Shown here: positions 13,818-32,867 of the stretch, in pieces | Position numbering within the stretch: position 1 is the stretch's first letter | Layout: the number at the start of each line of letters is the position of its first letter | Source: an uncultured Bacillota bacterium | GTDB lineage: Bacteria > Bacillota_I > Bacilli_A > RF39 > UBA660 | Direction: 5' to 3' | Length of the DNA stretch: 34,613 nt | NCBI GenBank assembly: GCA_947303895.1 | Contig: CAMYZQ010000006.1 | Span: 1-34,613, forward strand | The notes under the pieces: model-generated | Databases searched by the model: none | Told to the model about the DNA's origin: nothing | What the model saw: the letters and a program-made list of their open reading frames with translations, nothing else | Program-made: the position numbers and the translations under genes

Positions 13818-13909
13818 AGCATAACAAGATAAAAGTTATGCTCACTTTTACTGGTTTTTGTAAAAGTGAACCAAACCCCCTGAAGGAGCCTTGTGGCTCC
13901 GCTTTTTTT
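13818..13909 (+). ncRNA. Candidate small RNA of about 92 bases, three hairpins
   Basis: Non-coding unit with its own promoter and terminator. Hairpin 1: AGCATAAC/GTTATGCT (13818-13825 with 13835-13842). Hairpin 2: TCACTTTTAC/GTAAAAGTGA (13842-13851 with 13860-13869), loop TGGTTTTT. AACCA just after it (13869-13873) can pair with TGGTT in that loop, suggesting a pseudoknot. A single-stranded CCCCCTGAAG (13876-13885) precedes the terminator hairpin GGAGCC/GGCTCC and T7. A long in-frame extension of the next gene would cross this segment, but the protein it would encode is not gene-like. No known family recognised. An attenuator-type leader of the downstream regulator is the alternative, though that gene has its own promoter after the terminator. 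Confidence 0.6.
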
Positions 13910-13911
13910 AT
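13885..13911 (+). terminator. Terminator, identical to the one at 15654
   Basis: GGAGCC, loop TTGT, GGCTCC, then GC and seven T. The 27 bases 13885-13911 are identical to 15654-15680. Confidence 0.88.
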
Positions 13912-13915
13912 TTTA

Positions 13916-13924
13916 TGGTATAAT
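13916..13924 (+). promoter_or_regulatory. Extended -10 promoter of the WYL regulator
   Basis: TGGTATAAT (13916-13924), 21 bases before the ATG at 13946. Its -35 position falls in the GC-rich terminator hairpin. Confidence 0.7.
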
Positions 13925-13945
13925 TGTTTTAGGAGTTGGTTCAAC

Positions 13946-14572
13946 ATGTCAAAGATTAGTAATGTTGTTTTAATGCTTGAATATTTAAGTACTAGAAAGA
14001 AATATAGTATTCAAGAATTGTCTGATTTATTAGAAGTATCTCCAAGAATGATTAGAATATATAAAGATGAATTAGAAAAGGCTGGAATATATGTTGATAC
14101 TCTAAAAGGAGTATATGGTGGTTATGTATTAAACCAAAATATGAATATTCCATATTTATTATTTAATAATAAAGATTCGGATACTATTAAGAAATGTATC
14201 TCTGAAATAAAGGATTCTAAATTAAAAGAAGAATTGGAAAATCTTGAAAAAAAGATTACTACAAATTTAATTAAAGAAGAGAATAGTAAAAATGTTTTTG
14301 TAGCAGATGATAATGAACTAAATGTATATAATAAACTTAGTAGAGCTACTAAGAATCAACTTAAAGTTAGAATCAAATACTATAACTTACAACATGGTGA
14401 ATCTATTAGAACTATTTATCCTTTAGGTATGTATTTGTTTCAAGATGAATGGTGGTGTTCATCTTATTGGGAAGAAAAAGATGATATGAGACAATTTCAT
14501 ATTAAAAGAATTTCTGAATGTGAAATATTACCTGAAACATTTGATCCTAAAAAAATTAATATAAGATTTTAA
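13946..14572 (+). CDS. HTH-WYL domain transcriptional regulator
   Basis: Cytoplasmic DNA-binding regulator of 208 residues: an N-terminal helix-turn-helix (about 1-60; YSIQELSDLLEVSPRMIRIY, then GVYGGYVL as the wing) and a C-terminal WYL-type ligand domain (about 125-192; IRTIYPLGMYLFQDEWWCSS then RQFHIKRIS). In the name-giving position it has WWC rather than WYL. WYL domains often sense nucleic acids or nucleotides, and such regulators often control defence or DNA-damage genes; no defence gene is recognised here. The frame is open back to 13838, but that would translate the small RNA and terminator; the ATG at 13946 has AGGAG upstream. The SIS gene follows after 59 bases with no promoter seen, so the two are probably co-transcribed. 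Confidence 0.85.
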   Translation: MSKISNVVLMLEYLSTRKKYSIQELSDLLEVSPRMIRIYKDELEKAGIYVDTLKGVYGGYVLNQNMNIPYLLFNNKDSDTIKKCISEIKDSKLKEELENLEKKITTNLIKEENSKNVFVADDNELNVYNKLSRATKNQLKVRIKYYNLQHGESIRTIYPLGMYLFQDEWWCSSYWEEKDDMRQFHIKRISECEILPETFDPKKINIRF

Positions 14573-20488: not shown

Positions 20489-20512
20489 AAACAGAGTTAA
20501 ACTCTGTTTTTT
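20488..20512. terminator. Bidirectional terminator between convergent genes
   Basis: AAAACAGAGT/ACTCTGTTTT (20488-20497 with 20501-20510), 3-base loop, T run on the + side and A run on the other. It ends the gene at 18785 and the minus-strand gene at 20514. Confidence 0.85.
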
Positions 20513-20513
20513 A

Positions 20514-20813
20514 TTATCCAAAAAATCCTTTGTATTTTTGCATTTTAGGATTATTTCTTATCCTTTTTAATGCATATTCTTTTATTCCTATAACTTCTTC
20601 AGGAGTTAATTTAGGTCTTTTTATTATTTCAGCTATTTCTTCTGGAGTATGGTCTTGTTTAAAATGAGCATCAAACCATAGTTTTAATATTCTTCTTTCT
20701 AGAACATTTAATTCACATAAGCATTCTTTATAAGTACATATTAAAGCATTAATTTCTCGTCCTTTAAATACATAATCCGGATCAGGTGTTCTTGAATGAT
20801 CTACACGTCCCAT
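20514..20813 (-). CDS. Stand-alone sigma-70 region 4-like protein
   Basis: 99-residue protein. Residues 36-98 line up with the C-terminal region 4 of a primary sigma factor: LNVLERRILKLWF (sigma: LxxREREVLRLRF), HTPEEIAEII (TLEEVGxxF), LTPEEVIGIKEYALKRIR (VTRERIRQIExxALRKLR), and a tail NNPKMQKYKGFF resembling the RpoD ending. No region 2 or 3 is present. The DNA-reading helix has lost the usual Arg and Gln residues (TPEEVIGIKE), so -35 binding in the normal way is doubtful. An upstream in-frame ATG at 20837 would add eight residues, but AAAGGGG lies between the two ATGs and fits the start at 20813. Only minus-strand protein gene in the window, divergent from murC. Function inferred only by similarity. 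Confidence 0.75.
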   Translation of the reverse strand: MGRVDHSRTPDPDYVFKGREINALICTYKECLCELNVLERRILKLWFDAHFKQDHTPEEIAEIIKRPKLTPEEVIGIKEYALKRIRNNPKMQKYKGFFG

Positions 20814-20842
20814 ATAATTCGCCCCTTTAAAAAACATGTAAT

Positions 20843-20870
20843 ATTATATCAGAATTCTTTTATTAGTCAA
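20843..20870 (-). promoter_or_regulatory. Promoter of the sigma-region-4-like gene
   Basis: On the minus strand: TTGACT (20870-20865), 16-base spacer, TATAAT (20848-20843) with upstream TGA, an extended -10. One of the strongest promoters in the window. Confidence 0.75.
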
Positions 20871-20876
20871 ATTATG

Positions 20877-20885
20877 TGATATAAT
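20877..20885 (+). promoter_or_regulatory. Extended -10 promoter of murC
   Basis: TGATATAAT (20877-20885), 17 bases before the murC ATG. Any -35 would fall inside the divergent minus-strand promoter. Confidence 0.7.
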
Positions 20886-20902
20886 CATAATAGGTGATGA
20901 AT

Positions 20903-22207
20903 ATGAAATATTATTGTATAGGAATAAAGGGTGCTGGTGTGGCAACTTTAGCTTGTTTACTTAGTGATTTAGGATATGAAGTATCTGGTTATGATGATAC
21001 TAAAGATTTTAAATTTACTGAAAAAGGATTAGATGCTAGAGGTATTAAAATTTATTATGATGGAACTAAAGAAATAGATAGTGATACTATTATTACTGCT
21101 TCTAAAGCATTTAGTGAGGATCATAAAGAAATTAAAAGAATTAAAGAATTAGGATTTAATATAACTGCATATAATGAAATAATAGGAGATCTAACTAACA
21201 AATTTAGAACAGTTTCAGTATGTGGTACTCATGGTAAGACTACTACTACTTCTATGATTAGTCATATAGTTAATAATACTATTGGATGTAACTATTTTAT
21301 TGGAGATGGAAGAGGTTATGCTATTCCTGAAAATAATTTGTTTGTAATAGAATCAGATGAATATAATAAACACTTTTTAAAATATCATCCATCTATTTCA
21401 GTATGTACTAATATAGAATTAGAACATACAGAATGTTATGATGGATTAAGCGATATTATTAATTCATTTAGTATGTTTTTAAATAGTTCTAAAGAGTATT
21501 CAGTAGTATGTGGTGATAATGAAAATATAAGAAGTATTACATTTAATAATAAAGTAATTTATTATGGTGAAAATGATAATAATGAATACATAGTTAAAAA
21601 TATAGAAGTAAAAGAAGATGGAACATATTTTGATCTATATCACCATAACGAGTTTATATCTAATATAATGGTACCTGTATACGGTAAACATATGGCTTTA
21701 AATGCTTGTGCGGCCACTATAGTATCATTAAACCTTGGAATAGATATAGATAAGATTAAATCTTTATTAAAAGAGTTTAAAAATGCAGAAAGAAGATTTG
21801 AGGAAGAAAGAGTAGGAGACTCAATAATAGTTGATGATTATGCTCATCATCCAACTGAAATTAAAGTTACTTTAGAAGCTGCTAAAGCTAAATATCCGAA
21901 TAAAGATATTATTGCTATATTTAAACCAAATACATTTTCTAGAACTGTAGAGTTTACTGATGATTTTGCTAAAGCATTAGATATAGCAGATTATGTATAT
22001 ATTACTAATATTGATTCTAATAGAGAAAGACAAGAAGATTATCCTGGTGTTACATCAAATATGATACTTGAAAAGACTAGAAATGGTAAGCTATTAGATG
22101 AAAAAGAAATTAGTGATTTAGTTAGTCATAAAGGCAATATTTATGTGTTTATGAGTTGTGCTTCTATATCACATTTAAAAGAAGATTTAATAAATGAAAT
22201 TAAATAG
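20903..22207 (+). CDS. murC: MurC, UDP-MurNAc:L-Ala ligase
   Basis: Cytoplasmic ligase that adds L-alanine to UDP-MurNAc, the first amino acid of the stem peptide. MKYYCIGIKGAGVATLA (1-17) gives the nucleotide-binding start (usual GIGGxGMS read as GIKGAGVA); ATP motif CGTHGKTTTT (107-116); FVIESDEYN; NIELEHTE; VDDYAHHPTEI. The 434 residues are typical. GTG at 20894 and ATG at 20897 are in frame, but AGGTGA there is the Shine-Dalgarno; AGGTGATGAATATG matches the spacing used by murG, recG and murD. Stands alone in a divergent arrangement with the sigma-like gene. Confidence 0.95.
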   Translation: MKYYCIGIKGAGVATLACLLSDLGYEVSGYDDTKDFKFTEKGLDARGIKIYYDGTKEIDSDTIITASKAFSEDHKEIKRIKELGFNITAYNEIIGDLTNKFRTVSVCGTHGKTTTTSMISHIVNNTIGCNYFIGDGRGYAIPENNLFVIESDEYNKHFLKYHPSISVCTNIELEHTECYDGLSDIINSFSMFLNSSKEYSVVCGDNENIRSITFNNKVIYYGENDNNEYIVKNIEVKEDGTYFDLYHHNEFISNIMVPVYGKHMALNACAATIVSLNLGIDIDKIKSLLKEFKNAERRFEEERVGDSIIVDDYAHHPTEIKVTLEAAKAKYPNKDIIAIFKPNTFSRTVEFTDDFAKALDIADYVYITNIDSNRERQEDYPGVTSNMILEKTRNGKLLDEKEISDLVSHKGNIYVFMSCASISHLKEDLINEIK

Positions 22208-22291: not shown

Positions 22292-25200
22292 ATGAAGAAG
22301 AAAATATTAGGTATATTCTTATCGGTTTTTGCTTTTGTTTTAGTACCAAATATTGTAAAAGCGGAGGGAACAGTAGTTAAACCAACTACTGATATGTGTA
22401 GTGGTGCAGTTTATACTGGTGAAGAACAATCTTTAACTAGTGCTGCTCTTACTGGTTATCATTGGGTTAATAATATGGAAACTGATGCTGGTACATATAC
22501 AGTAACAGCAGTTTTAGATGAAGGCTATGAATGGGATGATAATTCGTCTTCTAATATTGATATTTCTTGTTCTATAGCTAGAGCTAAATTAACTCTTCCT
22601 ACATTAGATGAAGATGAATATGTATTTTCGGGCAGTTCAATTTATCCTGTTTTTATTGGCTTTGATGATACAAAGATGGATATGTCTGGAAATCTATATG
22701 CATCTTTACCTAGTGAATACGTTACAAATATATCTCCTAAATTAAATTATGAATGGCAAGATGGAAGTATTACTGCTGAAGCATATACTTGGCATATAAT
22801 TAAAGGAACTCCTACTACTCCAGTTGTTACTTCATATGAAGGAACTTTTGATGGACAACCACATACTGTAACAGTAAGTGGTATTGATTCTTTAATAGCA
22901 TTATATTCAACTGATCAATCATCGTGGGATACAACTATTCCTACATTAACTAATATTGGTTCAATTACAGTTTATGTTAAAACTCAAAGTAATTCAGTAT
23001 TTAATGAATCTGCAGTTGCTAGTGGAACAGTAACTATATTGCAAGGTGATCCTAATGATAATGGTTGGTATGACGATGGAACATATAAATATTACTATGT
23101 TGATGGTAGTCCTGTAACAGGATTAAGACATTTACCTAGACTTGGTAGTAGTGATCCTAATGAATATACATATTACTATTTTTCTGAAGAAACTGAGTCT
23201 TTAGGAAGAATGGTAACTGATTCTTGGATAGAAACAAATAACAGTAAATATTATTTTGATAATGATGGTGCTGCTGTTACTGGCTGGTACCAAGAAGTAT
23301 CTACAACTGATTTCTATTATTTTGGTAGTGATTGTAAGATGGTTATGGGTCTTCAATATCTTCCAAATAAAGATGATAATACTGTTTCAAATTATTATTA
23401 TTTTGATGGACTTGGTAGTAATACTCCAGGTTTAATGGTTACAAATACATGGATTGCATTACCAGAAGGAACTTTCTATATGACTTCTGATGGTACTCCA
23501 AAAACTGGTTGGTATGATGATGGTAGTGCTGTATATTATTTTGATAATGATGGAATATTAACTACAGGATTATTTACTGATACTGATGATAGAACATATT
23601 ATTTTAGTGAGGAATCCGAAAATATAGGTCATATGTTAACAGGTCTTCAAGTAGTTGGTGATAATGTATATTATTTTGCAGACGATGATGATAATGCAAA
23701 TAATATTAAAAAAGGTGAAGCTATAACTGGTTGGAAGACTGTAAATGGTTATAAATATTATTTTAGAACTGCTACTGATACACCAACAGTTGGTGCTAAA
23801 GGAACTGGAGTAACTGGATTTGTAGAGTTAGATTCTGAAAATTATTATTTTAGAGCAACTCATGAAGATCTTTCTAGTGGACCTTTAGGATCTATGTTTA
23901 AAGGTTTTGCTGTTATTAATAACGAAAAATATTATTTTAGAATTACTGAAGATGAAATAAGCACAGGTAGTGAAGGATCAATGCTTAAGAGTGCTTGTGT
24001 TACAGTTGATAATGGATATTATTGCTTTGATGAAAATGGTGATTTAGAATCTCAAATTATATCTATAGCTAAACCAACTGATAGTAGATGTAATCTAGGT
24101 CTAGTATATGATGGAACTAATAAAAACTTAATTAGTGATGCGTCTTTAGATGTAGGATTTACATGGTCAAATTATACTGAAGTAAATGCAGGTGAATATA
24201 CTATAATTGCTACTTTAAATGATGATTATAAATGGGATGATGATTCAACTGATCCAGTTGGTATTGTTTGTAGTATTGCTAAACAACAATTAACTATACC
24301 AACAATGGCAGTTTCTGATTTTGATTATAGTGGTTATTTAATTACTCCAATACTTGCTAACTTTAATAATTATGTTATGAATATAGAGGGCAATGAATCA
24401 GCAATTGAAGCTGGTGAATATGCATCTACAGTTAGTTTAAAATTCCCAAGTAATTATGAATGGGCTGATGGAACTGATACTCCAATTGAATTTTCTTGGA
24501 AAATTGAAAAAATTAATTATGCTGCTCCTATAGTTGAACCATATTTAGGTACATATGATGGTGAAGAACATTCGGTAACTGCTACTGGAGATGGTACTTT
24601 AGAATATTCAACTGATAATATTCTTTGGTCTACTGATGAAATAAAATATAGTGATGCTAGTGACTCACCATATCCAGTATATGTAAGAGTTAAAGCAGAT
24701 AATAATCATAATGCTTCTCAATCTGTTGAGAGTTCAATTACTATTAATAAAATAGTTGTTAATTTTCCAGTATTAGTAACATCGTTATTTAACTATACTG
24801 GTGAAGATATTAATCCAGAATTAACTGGTGTTGACATGAATTATATGACTGTTTCAGGCGAAACAATAGGAAAGAATGCTGGCGAATATGATATTATGGT
24901 ATCTTTAAAAGATAGAACAAATACTGTATGGGAAGATAATACTGATGGCTCTCATTTTCTTAAATGGAAAATAGCTAAGGTTACTGGTGGTGCTCCTACA
25001 GTTGGACCATACGTAGGAACTTATGATAAACAACCACATTCGATTGAAGCTATTGGCTCTGGTGAACTTGAGTATTCATTAGATATTACTGACGAAAATG
25101 GTTGGTCTGATGAAAATCCAACTAAAGTAGATGCTGGAGTATATACTATTTACGTAAGAACTAAGGGTGATGAAAACCATGAACCTTCAGAATCTGTAAG

Positions 25201-26167
25201 TAGTACAATAACTATTAATAAAAGAAGTTTAATTAAACCAACTAAAACTAAGAGTAGTTATTTATTTACTGGTAGTGAAGTTGATTTCAGTGTAAATTTC
25301 TTTAATGATAATTGGTCTGAATGGATGATGAAAACAGGTACTTATTCAGCAACAACTGTTGGTGAATATGTAGCTGAAGTTGCCTTATTAGATTCCGTTA
25401 ATACAGAGTGGGCAGATGGAACTACTGCTAATGTTTCATTTACTTGGTATATTACTCAATCACAAGCGGCTAATCCAGTAATTACTAATTATACTGGTGC
25501 TTATGATGGACAACCACATTCGATAACTGTTGAGAATCCATCTTATGGAACAATATTCTATTCAACAAATTATAATACTCCAGGAGTAGATACTGTATGG
25601 TCAACAACTAATCCTACAAGAACTAATGTTGGATATACTAATGTATATGTATATATTAAAGGTGATTCAAATCATACAGATTCGCAAGTAGTAATGGGAA
25701 CAATAACTATTACTGATGCAGTACCTGATTATAATATAGATAATTATACGGTTGATGAAAATAATGATTTCATTACTGGTATAACTGTTGGTACAGAATT
25801 AGAAACATTTATTAGTAATATTACACTTGGAACTGGTTATAGTGTTGTTGTTGATACTAAAACAGTCGATGGAAAACAAATTTTATATACTGGTGGTAAA
25901 ACAACAATTAAGCAAGGAAATGCAGTAGTTGCAGTGTTTACTAATGTTGTTAGTGGTGATTCAAGTGGAGATGGAAAAGTTAATTATCTTGATTATGTAT
26001 ATGTATATAATCATATTCAAAAAACTAAACATCCAGAATCAAATAAACAATTACTTGTTGGTGCATATCTAAAAGCTGGTGATATGTCTAATGATAATAA
26101 TATTACATATTTGGATTATGTATTCATATATAATAAGATTAAAGAATTAAAAGGAGGAAATAATTAA
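22292..26167 (+). CDS. Secreted modular protein: Ig-like repeats, cell-wall-binding repeats, C-terminal dockerin
   Basis: Exported 1291-residue protein. Signal peptide 1-24 (cleavage near VKA-EG). Modules, in order: C (about 25-97), B (98-171) and A (172-250); choline/glucan-binding-type repeats (about 257-590: GWYDDG, YYYFSEE, YYFDNDG, TGW...); then C (591-664), B (665-740), A (741-819), B (820-896), A (897-977), B (978-1056), A (1057-1141). The A module carries YDGxxHS and ends in a TITI strand; B carries YSG and EW-DGT; C carries a Cys pair. Residues 1142-1221 are a spacer domain. The C-terminus is a type I-like dockerin with two loops, GDSSGDGKVNYLDYVYVYN (1222-1240) and GDMSNDNNITYLDYVFIYN (1263-1281). 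Dockerins bind cohesins; no cohesin is seen in the window. No LPXTG or membrane anchor is present. AGGAG before the start. The stop overlaps the next ATG. Confidence 0.9.
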   Translation: MKKKILGIFLSVFAFVLVPNIVKAEGTVVKPTTDMCSGAVYTGEEQSLTSAALTGYHWVNNMETDAGTYTVTAVLDEGYEWDDNSSSNIDISCSIARAKLTLPTLDEDEYVFSGSSIYPVFIGFDDTKMDMSGNLYASLPSEYVTNISPKLNYEWQDGSITAEAYTWHIIKGTPTTPVVTSYEGTFDGQPHTVTVSGIDSLIALYSTDQSSWDTTIPTLTNIGSITVYVKTQSNSVFNESAVASGTVTILQGDPNDNGWYDDGTYKYYYVDGSPVTGLRHLPRLGSSDPNEYTYYYFSEETESLGRMVTDSWIETNNSKYYFDNDGAAVTGWYQEVSTTDFYYFGSDCKMVMGLQYLPNKDDNTVSNYYYFDGLGSNTPGLMVTNTWIALPEGTFYMTSDGTPKTGWYDDGSAVYYFDNDGILTTGLFTDTDDRTYYFSEESENIGHMLTGLQVVGDNVYYFADDDDNANNIKKGEAITGWKTVNGYKYYFRTATDTPTVGAKGTGVTGFVELDSENYYFRATHEDLSSGPLGSMFKGFAVINNEKYYFRITEDEISTGSEGSMLKSACVTVDNGYYCFDENGDLESQIISIAKPTDSRCNLGLVYDGTNKNLISDASLDVGFTWSNYTEVNAGEYTIIATLNDDYKWDDDSTDPVGIVCSIAKQQLTIPTMAVSDFDYSGYLITPILANFNNYVMNIEGNESAIEAGEYASTVSLKFPSNYEWADGTDTPIEFSWKIEKINYAAPIVEPYLGTYDGEEHSVTATGDGTLEYSTDNILWSTDEIKYSDASDSPYPVYVRVKADNNHNASQSVESSITINKIVVNFPVLVTSLFNYTGEDINPELTGVDMNYMTVSGETIGKNAGEYDIMVSLKDRTNTVWEDNTDGSHFLKWKIAKVTGGAPTVGPYVGTYDKQPHSIEAIGSGELEYSLDITDENGWSDENPTKVDAGVYTIYVRTKGDENHEPSESVSSTITINKRSLIKPTKTKSSYLFTGSEVDFSVNFFNDNWSEWMMKTGTYSATTVGEYVAEVALLDSVNTEWADGTTANVSFTWYITQSQAANPVITNYTGAYDGQPHSITVENPSYGTIFYSTNYNTPGVDTVWSTTNPTRTNVGYTNVYVYIKGDSNHTDSQVVMGTITITDAVPDYNIDNYTVDENNDFITGITVGTELETFISNITLGTGYSVVVDTKTVDGKQILYTGGKTTIKQGNAVVAVFTNVVSGDSSGDGKVNYLDYVYVYNHIQKTKHPESNKQLLVGAYLKAGDMSNDNNITYLDYVFIYNKIKELKGGNN

Positions 26168-30989: not shown

Positions 30990-32867
30990 ATGAAAAAGAT
31001 ATTAAGTAGTATTAAAGATTTTTTAGTTAAACACAAATTAATTGTTTTAATCACTTTAGGTGTAATACTTGTTTTAATTGCTTTATTAGTTATACTAAAT
31101 AGATCTAGTGTAGATAAAGTAAAAAGTGTTAGAAAAGTATTATCTAATCGTTATTACAAGATTGAATGTATGAGTGATGATTGTGAATATATTATTGCTT
31201 ATAAGGGAGATTTAATTGGTAAAACTAAGATTAAAATTTTAAATTCTAAAGGTAAAAAAGTAGCAGCTTATACTGAAAAGTTAAACTTAGATAAATTAAC
31301 TATTAGAAATATAACTGCTGTTAATAAGAATTATATTATTTTTGATAAAGCTGATGCTGCCAATAATAAATCTGCAGGTTATGCAATAGCTAAAACTAAT
31401 GGCAAAGAAATATATAGTACTGATAATAAATTAATTGCTTTAAATGATAATTTAATAAGCGAAAAATTAGAAGAATCTTATAATATTTTAAATAAAAATG
31501 GTAAAGTATTATTTACTAATGTTAAAGATATTAAAGGTTATAATGATAATAAGATTTTATCTGCTACTGTTAAGAATGAAGACTATATTATAAATGAAAA
31601 AGGTGAGTTAATTCTTAATGGATATAGTATTGTTAAAGGAGTTAAAGATGAAGAAGATAATACTCTTTATTTAATTCTTCAAGATTCAGGTAAAAATGCT
31701 TATTATTACTATGATATTAAAGATAATAAGATAGTAGGAGATGCATTTAATAGTTATACAAATGGGTCTAATATAGGTGAATTAATTGTTACTAAGAAAA
31801 ATAATAATGACTATATTAAATATATTTTAAAAGCTAATGGTAAAACTGTTAAATTAAGTAATGTATCCTATGATGATTTAAAGTCTATAGATACAAATAA
31901 ATATACTATTGTATATGATAGTTATATTATAAAAGAACAAAGTGCTGTTTTAGTTAGTACTAAAGGTGATAATAAGTTTGGTATTTATAACTTAAAAACT
32001 AATAAATTTACTAAATTATTTGATGGAAGTGCTAGTTCATTAAATAAATTATTATCTAACGAAAAAGCTCTATTTGTAGGAGTAAATTATAACTCTGAAG
32101 ATAGTAATACTATGTATGTTTATGACTTAGTTAATGATAAAAAAGTTTATGAATTAACTAGTAAGGATTTTAGTATTCAATATTATACTAACTATGGTGA
32201 TTATAATGTTGTTAGATACTCATCATCTTCATCTGAAGACTATAAGGGTAAATATGCTGTATATGACAAGAATAATAAAGAAATCTATAGATCTGATAAC
32301 CAAATTGTTGTTGTTGATAAAGACTATGTATTTGGTAAAGAACCATCAAATAGTCAATTAATTCTATTTAATGCTAAGAAAAATAAAGTAATAAATACTG
32401 AAGATACTTTAGCTTCTAGAGTAACTATTGGTAAATCATATTTCTATAAATTTAGTGATAGTGAAAAGACATATTTATATAACTGTAAAGGTGAAAAATT
32501 AAAAACAATTAATATGTCAACTGTATCATTTATTTACAGTACAGATACTATTATTTACATTTACAATAATAAAGTATATATTGTAAACCCAACAGATAAT
32601 AGAACTACAACATATAAATTAAAAGTAAATGAAAGATTAAATGCTAATGATGGTGATTTATTAGCGCCTTATAAAAATACTTTATATATTAATAATCCTG
32701 TAAATAACTATTCTAAAGTAGTAAGTGTTAATGGATTTAGACTTAGAAAAATGAGAAAATCTACTATAGAATCAGTAAATTATAATAAAAAATCTAAGAA
32801 TGTAATTATAGTTACAAAGAAGGTTAAGAAGAATAATAATTTATATGGATTATATATAGGAAAATAG
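30990..32867 (+). CDS. Membrane-anchored extracellular protein, beta-propeller-like
   Basis: Unrecognised 625-residue protein. Basic N-terminus and a single membrane helix (about 15-37), then a large part outside the cell with no further hydrophobic segments. The extracellular part is rich in Lys, Asn, Tyr and short alternating strands with repeated motifs of the type NKNGKVLF, NEKGELIL, DKNNKEIY and YNCKGEKL, each a turn between two strands; this spacing suggests a beta-propeller, but no named family fits. Cys residues in IECMSDDCEY (55-64) could form a disulfide. AGGAG upstream of the ATG. Own promoter and terminator, so a single-gene unit between the exporter and the adhesin-like gene. Confidence 0.78.
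   Translation: MKKILSSIKDFLVKHKLIVLITLGVILVLIALLVILNRSSVDKVKSVRKVLSNRYYKIECMSDDCEYIIAYKGDLIGKTKIKILNSKGKKVAAYTEKLNLDKLTIRNITAVNKNYIIFDKADAANNKSAGYAIAKTNGKEIYSTDNKLIALNDNLISEKLEESYNILNKNGKVLFTNVKDIKGYNDNKILSATVKNEDYIINEKGELILNGYSIVKGVKDEEDNTLYLILQDSGKNAYYYYDIKDNKIVGDAFNSYTNGSNIGELIVTKKNNNDYIKYILKANGKTVKLSNVSYDDLKSIDTNKYTIVYDSYIIKEQSAVLVSTKGDNKFGIYNLKTNKFTKLFDGSASSLNKLLSNEKALFVGVNYNSEDSNTMYVYDLVNDKKVYELTSKDFSIQYYTNYGDYNVVRYSSSSSEDYKGKYAVYDKNNKEIYRSDNQIVVVDKDYVFGKEPSNSQLILFNAKKNKVINTEDTLASRVTIGKSYFYKFSDSEKTYLYNCKGEKLKTINMSTVSFIYSTDTIIYIYNNKVYIVNPTDNRTTTYKLKVNERLNANDGDLLAPYKNTLYINNPVNNYSKVVSVNGFRLRKMRKSTIESVNYNKKSKNVIIVTKKVKKNNNLYGLYIGK

What the first reader, a model, noticed from the sequence alone, without database searches (positions are those of the whole stretch)
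20514..20813. Stand-alone sigma region 4 with an altered DNA-reading helix
The 99-residue protein copies RpoD region 4 to its tail, but has no region 2 and has lost Arg/Gln in the recognition helix (TPEEVIGIKE). Most promoters in the window have extended -10 elements and no -35, the element normally read by region 4. A free region 4-like protein could act on RNA polymerase as an anti-sigma/co-sigma, or occupy the beta-flap. The link to the weak -35s is speculative.
Basis: inference. Interest (0 to 1): 0.6.

Follow-up and report, generated by a model that had tools for sequence, protein, structure and literature searches.

The report
Fast-changing stand-alone sigma region 4
A small gene in a rumen bacterium encodes only the last domain of a transcription (sigma) factor, without the residues that normally read promoters, and it differs far more between close relatives than the genes beside it, hinting at an unrecognised contest around RNA polymerase.

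Summary
Window 20514-20813 (-) encodes a 99-aa protein homologous to sigma-70 region 4 and to nothing else I could find. It has no region 2. The -35-reading residues R584, R586 and Q589 are replaced in it and in both orthologues. The genome's RpoD is normal.

The proposed link to extended -10 promoters is not supported: genomes with the gene are not enriched for them. A split sigma with a region-2 partner is not supported either.

The new point is its evolution. The gene occurs in 3 of 12 genomes of the genus, always divergent from murC. Flanking proteins are mostly 78-100% identical to the closest carrier, but this protein is 39-41%. DNA identity falls from about 95% to 62% almost exactly at the coding ends. 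Synonymous codons are also too diverged for the flanks, so I infer replacement of whole alleles, with dN/dS 0.65-0.87 against 0.05-0.09 in murC.

Best guess (0.35): a sigma-4 mimic that works through RNA polymerase rather than by reading -35 elements. RNA polymerase binding was not shown, and the published core-contact residues are only partly kept. Rivals: a DNA-binding regulator, a phage-conflict decoy, a decaying remnant. Only three genomes carry it.

The parts
20514..20813 (-). CDS of the stand-alone sigma region-4-like protein (99 aa, P0001)
20821..20828 (-). Shine-Dalgarno-like AAAGGGGC upstream of the ATG at 20813
   Evidence: read
20843..20848 (-). perfect -10 TATAAT; TG extension at 20850-20851
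   Evidence: coordinates read
20865..20870 (-). -35-like TTGACT, 16-nt spacer
   Evidence: coordinates read
20490..20513 (.). hairpin with T run after the stop codon, shared with the convergent 567-aa ORF (terminator-like)
   Evidence: read; conserved in G010 and in similar form in G005
20676..20705 (-). helix 2 (residues 37-46, region 4.1), 4 of 10 columns invariant in the three orthologues
20553..20603 (-). helix 4 (residues 71-87), the recognition helix; 2 of 17 columns invariant; -35-reading residues replaced
20523..20552 (-). C-terminal helix 5 and its lead-in (residues 88-97, NNPKMQKYKG), 5 of 10 columns invariant
20894..22207 (+). murC, divergent neighbour in all three carriers; extended -10 TATAAT at 20880-20885

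Best explanation
The gene makes a free copy of sigma-70 region 4, plus the stretch that leads into it, which has lost the promoter -35 code. Most likely it acts on RNA polymerase at or near the place of sigma region 4 (the beta flap), as a mimic or competitor of RpoD region 4. It would then weaken or redirect -35-dependent transcription, much as T4 gp33 does with an unrelated fold. Its exposed surfaces, above all the former recognition helix, change fast and whole alleles are exchanged between close relatives, which points to a variable partner other than the polymerase itself. Shown: homology, fold prediction, missing region 2, changed helix, allele-like divergence. Inferred: polymerase binding, effect on transcription, the nature of the variable partner.
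For: Only sigma region 4 matches by profile and fold; all 50 rows printed from the PDB fold search of each model are sigma chains or sigma region-4 fragments. R584, R586 and Q589 are lost in 3 of 3 orthologues. E555 is kept in 3 of 3, an aromatic at F563 in 3 of 3 (F, Y, F) and an aliphatic at L598 in 3 of 3 (I, V, I); these are core-binding positions in a published list (PMC4943231, one passage read). Helix 4 has 2 of 17 invariant columns, helices 1+2+5 have 15 of 42. Core polymerase contact by helices 1, 2 and 5: PMC2988021, passages. Precedent for a small flap-bound sigma-4 mimic that reads no DNA sequence and represses basal transcription: gp33 (PMC2988020 and PMC7892883, passages). No region-2 partner among Sigma70_r2 hits, so it is not half of an evident split sigma.
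Against: Strict identity at the six published core-binding positions is low (2, 1 and 3 of 6), no better than at the sixteen -35 positions (6, 4 and 4 of 16); own RpoD keeps 5 of 6 and 14 of 16. R562 is Trp in all three. The helix 4 contrast is not significant (Fisher p 0.11). No complex was modelled. All three proteins are basic (pI 9.0-9.6), which also suits a DNA binder. rpoB was not found in the window genome or in G010, so coevolution with the flap could not be tested.
Confidence: 0.35

Rival explanations
1. A sequence-specific DNA-binding regulator: the sigma-4 helix-turn-helix works alone, each allele reading its own site, perhaps the overlapping divergent promoters of its own gene and murC.
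For: The helix-turn-helix is predicted intact; proteins are basic; the G010 orthologue also matches GerE weakly (E 0.0011, below cut-off); its -35 at 20865-20870 lies 10 bases from the murC -10 at 20880-20885 (read). Stand-alone region-4-like regulators are known (YlxM in this genome next to ffh, named from recall).
Against: The recognition helix is not conserved although the promoter region next to it is 94% identical between the window genome and G010 (76 of 81); a regulator of its own or murC's promoter should keep its reading helix.
Confidence: 0.25
2. A phage-conflict gene: a decoy (or decoy-derived) sigma region 4 that soaks up phage anti-sigma proteins aimed at region 4, its alleles tracking phage variety.
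For: Alleles exchanged and very diverged inside near-identical flanks while RpoD region 4 is identical in the three carriers; phage proteins that bind region 4 exist in Firmicutes (G1 ORF67 with S. aureus SigA domain 4 is among the fold hits) and T4 AsiA (PMC2988021). In G005 the neighbour is a NOV_C-domain protein.
Against: No PADLOC hit for this protein or for the five others scanned, apart from the WYL regulator; no phage factor of this host is known; a decoy should copy RpoD region 4 closely, and this does not.
Confidence: 0.12
3. A decaying remnant of a sigma factor or phage gene under weak constraint, with no present function of note.
For: dN/dS 0.65-0.87 across the gene; substitutions nearly even over the three codon positions (34/29/24, 36/36/44 and 45/29/32); found in only 3 of 12 genomes of the genus.
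Against: Intact in 3 of 3 genomes; the neutral simulation gives an open frame in 0.3-1.1% of runs and less amino acid identity than seen (P 0.03, 0.0006, 0.0002); decay in place cannot make the G010 copy 38% different in DNA inside flanks 5-6% different.
Confidence: 0.22
4. One half of a split sigma factor (like SigO-RsoA), with region 2 supplied by another protein.
For: Region 4 alone is what SigO carries against RsoA (PMC8103513, passage).
Against: Sigma70_r2 finds only RpoD in the window genome (71% complete) and in G010 (81%), and RpoD plus one 205-aa frame in G005 (94%); no region-2-only neighbour.
Confidence: 0.03

Closest known systems
RpoD/SigA region 4 (Pfam PF04545 Sigma70_r4)
   Same: Fold, helix order, sequence profile from the lead-in helix to the C-terminal helix.
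   Different: No regions 1-3; -35-reading residues replaced; very fast evolving; absent from most genomes of the genus.
Small Sigma70_r4 proteins of uncultured Caudovirales phages (BFVD A0A6J5S254, A0A6J5LJJ3, A0A6J5LKM7)
   Same: Stand-alone region 4 of 94-136 aa; they rank first, fifth and eighth in the viral fold search.
   Different: Foldseek E 0.007-0.12, so only a fold-level match; this gene sits among cell-wall genes; no viral sequence relative found.
T4 gp33 (flap-bound sigma-4 mimic)
   Same: Small (112 aa), no sequence-specific DNA reading, proposed place of action the same; works like it if the best explanation is right.
   Different: gp33 is not structurally related to sigma region 4 (PMC7892883); it needs the sliding clamp; no such motif was looked for here.
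SigO-RsoA two-subunit sigma of B. subtilis
   Same: Region 4 on a separate polypeptide.
   Different: No free region-2 partner found.
YlxM
   Same: Small region-4-like helix-turn-helix protein of Firmicutes (named from recall).
   Different: The genome has its own candidate beside ffh (L002), over the Sigma70_r4 cut-off; this gene is separate.

Membership tests
Sigma-70 region 4 domain (PF04545) | Profile match over the curated cut-off | tested here: inconclusive
   Window protein 16.4 bits against a cut-off of 24.1; orthologues 28.7 and 33.2, over it; profile of the three against the PDB reaches RpoD at E 1e-9.
Sigma-70 region 4 domain (PF04545) | Region 4 fold with helix-turn-helix | tested here: met
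   AF2 pLDDT 75.4 and 79.8; all 50 printed PDB Foldseek rows are sigma for each model, best E 0.036 and 0.0022; VIA Z 9.9, rmsd 3.4, 88 aligned, sigma70 525-612.
Sigma-70 region 4 domain (PF04545) | Residues that read the -35 element | tested here: not met
   R584, R586, Q589 lost in 3 of 3; 6 of 16 listed positions kept in the window protein.
Sigma factor (promoter specificity subunit) | Region 2 for core clamp and -10 recognition | tested here: not met
   99 aa, only region 4 and its lead-in.
Two-subunit sigma (SigO-RsoA type) | Separate region-2 partner | tested here: not met
   Only RpoD and one 205-aa frame among Sigma70_r2 hits in the three carriers; two of the three genomes are incomplete.
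Flap-binding sigma-4 mimic (gp33-like in action) | Binding to the beta flap | not testable with these tools
   Published core-binding positions kept 2, 1 and 3 of 6 by identity.
Anti-phage defence protein | Match to a known defence family | tested here: not met
   No PADLOC match at E<=0.01.

The most novel reading that the evidence does not exclude
A chromosomal decoy or competitor of sigma region 4 whose alleles are exchanged as whole cassettes between closely related gut bacteria, because the protein sits in an arms race around RNA polymerase (for example with phage proteins that seize sigma region 4).
Probability: 0.12. Interest if true: 0.8.

Novelty: new variant of a known kind. Interest (0 to 1): 0.42.

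Why it matters
Promoter-reading domains are among the most conserved proteins of a cell; here RpoD region 4 is identical in the three genomes while a free copy next to murC is 39-49% identical. If it acts on RNA polymerase, it would be a variable, non-essential regulator of the housekeeping enzyme and a handle on what presses on sigma region 4 in gut bacteria. If it does not, it is still a clean case of allele replacement confined to one short gene.

Tried and rejected
Split sigma partner: rejected for lack of a free region 2. Link to extended -10 promoters: rejected, carriers not enriched. Matching change in RpoD: rejected. Non-sigma HTH: no better match in Pfam, NCBIfam, PHROGs or PDB. Phage origin by sequence: none in viral contigs, none convincing in phages (best E 1; the best hit, MT836547.1, reads as part of a full sigma gene beside a helicase-like and a glutamyl-tRNA-synthetase-like ORF). 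Genome contigs: P0001 none, A1 two loci, the records of G005 and G010. YlxM: a separate gene. rpoB flap comparison: not possible, no hit in G000 or G010. Rfam and tRNA scans of the window: nothing. Literature searches in the held open library; searches gave nothing relevant. I make no claim that this is absent from print.

Full report
What is there. The window is part of a low-GC (26.8%) Bacilli-type contig with the cell-division and cell-wall cluster (ftsA, ftsZ, mraZ, mraW, murG, murB, murD, murC; names from recall on the translations). The two nearest carriers are records titled Bacilli bacterium from buffalo reticulum and sheep rumen. Between murD and murC lies, on the minus strand, a 99-aa gene (20514-20813) with its own Shine-Dalgarno sequence and a promoter with TTGACT, a 16-nt spacer and TG-extended TATAAT (positions read).

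What it is by homology. Alone, the window protein is a weak Sigma70_r4 match (E 0.0065, below the cut-off). Two orthologues, in genomes G005 and G010, pass the cut-off (9.3e-7, 3.6e-8). The three-row profile A1 reaches RpoD chains in the PDB at 1e-9 and matches 287 of 291 family genomes at E<=0.001, the printed rows being mainly RpoD-length frames. No non-sigma family does better. AlphaFold2 on two orthologues gives pLDDT 75.4 and 79.8 with helices in the order of region 4. For each model all 50 PDB rows printed by Foldseek are sigma, though no E-value is under 0.001 (best 0.036 and 0.0022). VIA-align 2 superposes residues 8-99 on sigma70 525-612 at Z 9.9, rmsd 3.4, 88 aligned, so the protein is the lead-in to region 4 plus region 4 to its tail.

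What has changed. Of 16 positions that a paper lists for the -35 contact (PMC4943231, one passage), the window protein keeps 6 and the orthologues 4 each; RpoD of the same genome keeps 14. R584, R586 and Q589 are lost in all three. R584 and E585 are the base-specific contacts at -31 and -33 (PMC2613000, passages); E585 is kept in the window protein only. Of six listed core-binding positions, 2, 1 and 3 are identical: E555 in all, an aromatic at 563 and an aliphatic at 598 in all, R562 turned to Trp in all. The sequence thus neither proves nor excludes flap binding, and I count this against my own reading.

Distribution. In the genus 3 of 12 held genomes carry it, each divergent from murC. MurC of the orthologues is 98% and 94% identical. 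Two further genomes have murC at 82% and no such gene in the 1.5 kb upstream of it. Seven gave no murC at the cut-off used. In a draw of 291 family genomes the printed profile matches beyond the orthologues lie in longer frames (175 aa or more); the list was cut, so a weak small copy elsewhere is not excluded.

Evolution. Of 26 window genes compared, 24 have a G010 match in the stretches fetched. Leaving out this gene, the large surface protein at 22292 (65%), the partly covered gene at 26167 (87% over 141 aa) and the gene at 30990 (33%, other locus, probably not the orthologue), the other 20 are 78-100% identical; this protein is 39% in that search (41%). Against G005 it is 47% (49%) where the neighbours murD and murC are 93-95%. 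DNA identity with G010 is 392 of 401 columns in the left 400 nt, 58 of 61 in the last 60 nt, 187 of 302 in the gene, 76 of 81 in the promoter gap and 388 of 400 in murC. dN/dS (NG86) is 0.38/0.46, 0.53/0.82 and 0.51/0.58 for the three pairs against 0.030/0.345, 0.0077/0.170 and 0.026/0.341 in murC.

Fast change in place or swapped alleles? At codons for identical amino acids the window and G010 genes differ in 12 of 39 codons, murC in 38 of 426 (Fisher p 0.0003) and the ORF on the other side in 15 of 415 (p 2e-7; counts, tests). So the G010 and window alleles are older than their flanks: one was swapped in with edges close to the coding ends. Between the window and G005 the synonymous difference (9 of 46) equals that of murC (67 of 410, p 0.54), so there the gene went down the same line and the amino acids changed about as fast as silent sites. 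It is still a protein under some constraint: simulated neutral change leaves the frame open in 0.3-1.1% of runs and gives lower identity than seen (P 0.03, 0.0006 and 0.0002). In the loop and helix 4, G005 against G010 has dN 1.17 and dS 0.40, but on 22 codons. RpoD region 4 is identical in the three genomes, so a changing partner on the RpoD side does not explain it.

Promoter link. Extended -10 promoters are indeed common in the window (11 of the 13 starts with a perfect -10, of 17 starts examined; ties were broken in favour of TG). They are as common in genomes without the gene, so they are a feature of the lineage and not evidence for this protein.

How it may work. With no region 2 and no -35 code it cannot be a sigma factor by itself. 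The place of sigma region 4 is the beta flap, met through helices 1, 2 and 5 (PMC2988021, passages). gp33 of T4 shows that a small protein there can do without DNA reading and repress basal transcription (PMC2988020, PMC7892883, passages). I therefore put a polymerase-directed sigma-4 mimic first at 0.35, ahead of a DNA-binding regulator (0.25), a remnant (0.22) and a phage-conflict decoy (0.12). None is shown.

Known kind or not. Stand-alone region 4 proteins of 94-136 aa exist in predicted phage proteomes, so the architecture is known. A chromosomal one with a changed helix and allele replacement inside fixed flanks is a variant of it.

Limits. Three carriers, one genome each, two of them incomplete (71% and 81%); no reads; no complex prediction.

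Noticed in passing
L099 2008-3951 and L100 1382-3469 (G009, G004), beside murC: Large sigma-like proteins (647 and 695 aa) with Sigma70_r2, a weak Sigma70_r4 and long extra stretches before, between and after them, directly or one gene from murC in the sister group.
   Followed up: partly
L022, L023, L026: Other unusual large sigma-like proteins of the family (frames of 336, 686 and 645 aa) whose C-terminal region 4 is among the best matches of the profile after the orthologues.
   Followed up: partly
L101 6978-7943 (G005): A 321-aa NOV_C (PF13020) protein stands between murD and the small gene where the window and G010 have a 567-aa ORF without any family match.
   Followed up: partly
window 22292-26167: Surface-type protein of 1291 aa, only 65% identical to its G010 counterpart, with repeats and a dockerin-like C-terminus by eye; the G005 counterpart has a different N-terminal part.
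   Followed up: no
window 30990-32867: 625-aa protein with relatives of only 33-34% identity at another place on the same contig in G005 and G010.
   Followed up: no
window, 17 gene starts: Extended -10 boxes (TGnTATAAT) dominate, mostly without a recognisable -35.
   Followed up: partly
window 13838-14572: WYL-domain regulator, matching CRISPR-associated WYL models in PADLOC (E 2e-28), unusually variable (78% to G010) and not found in the G005 stretches fetched.
   Followed up: no
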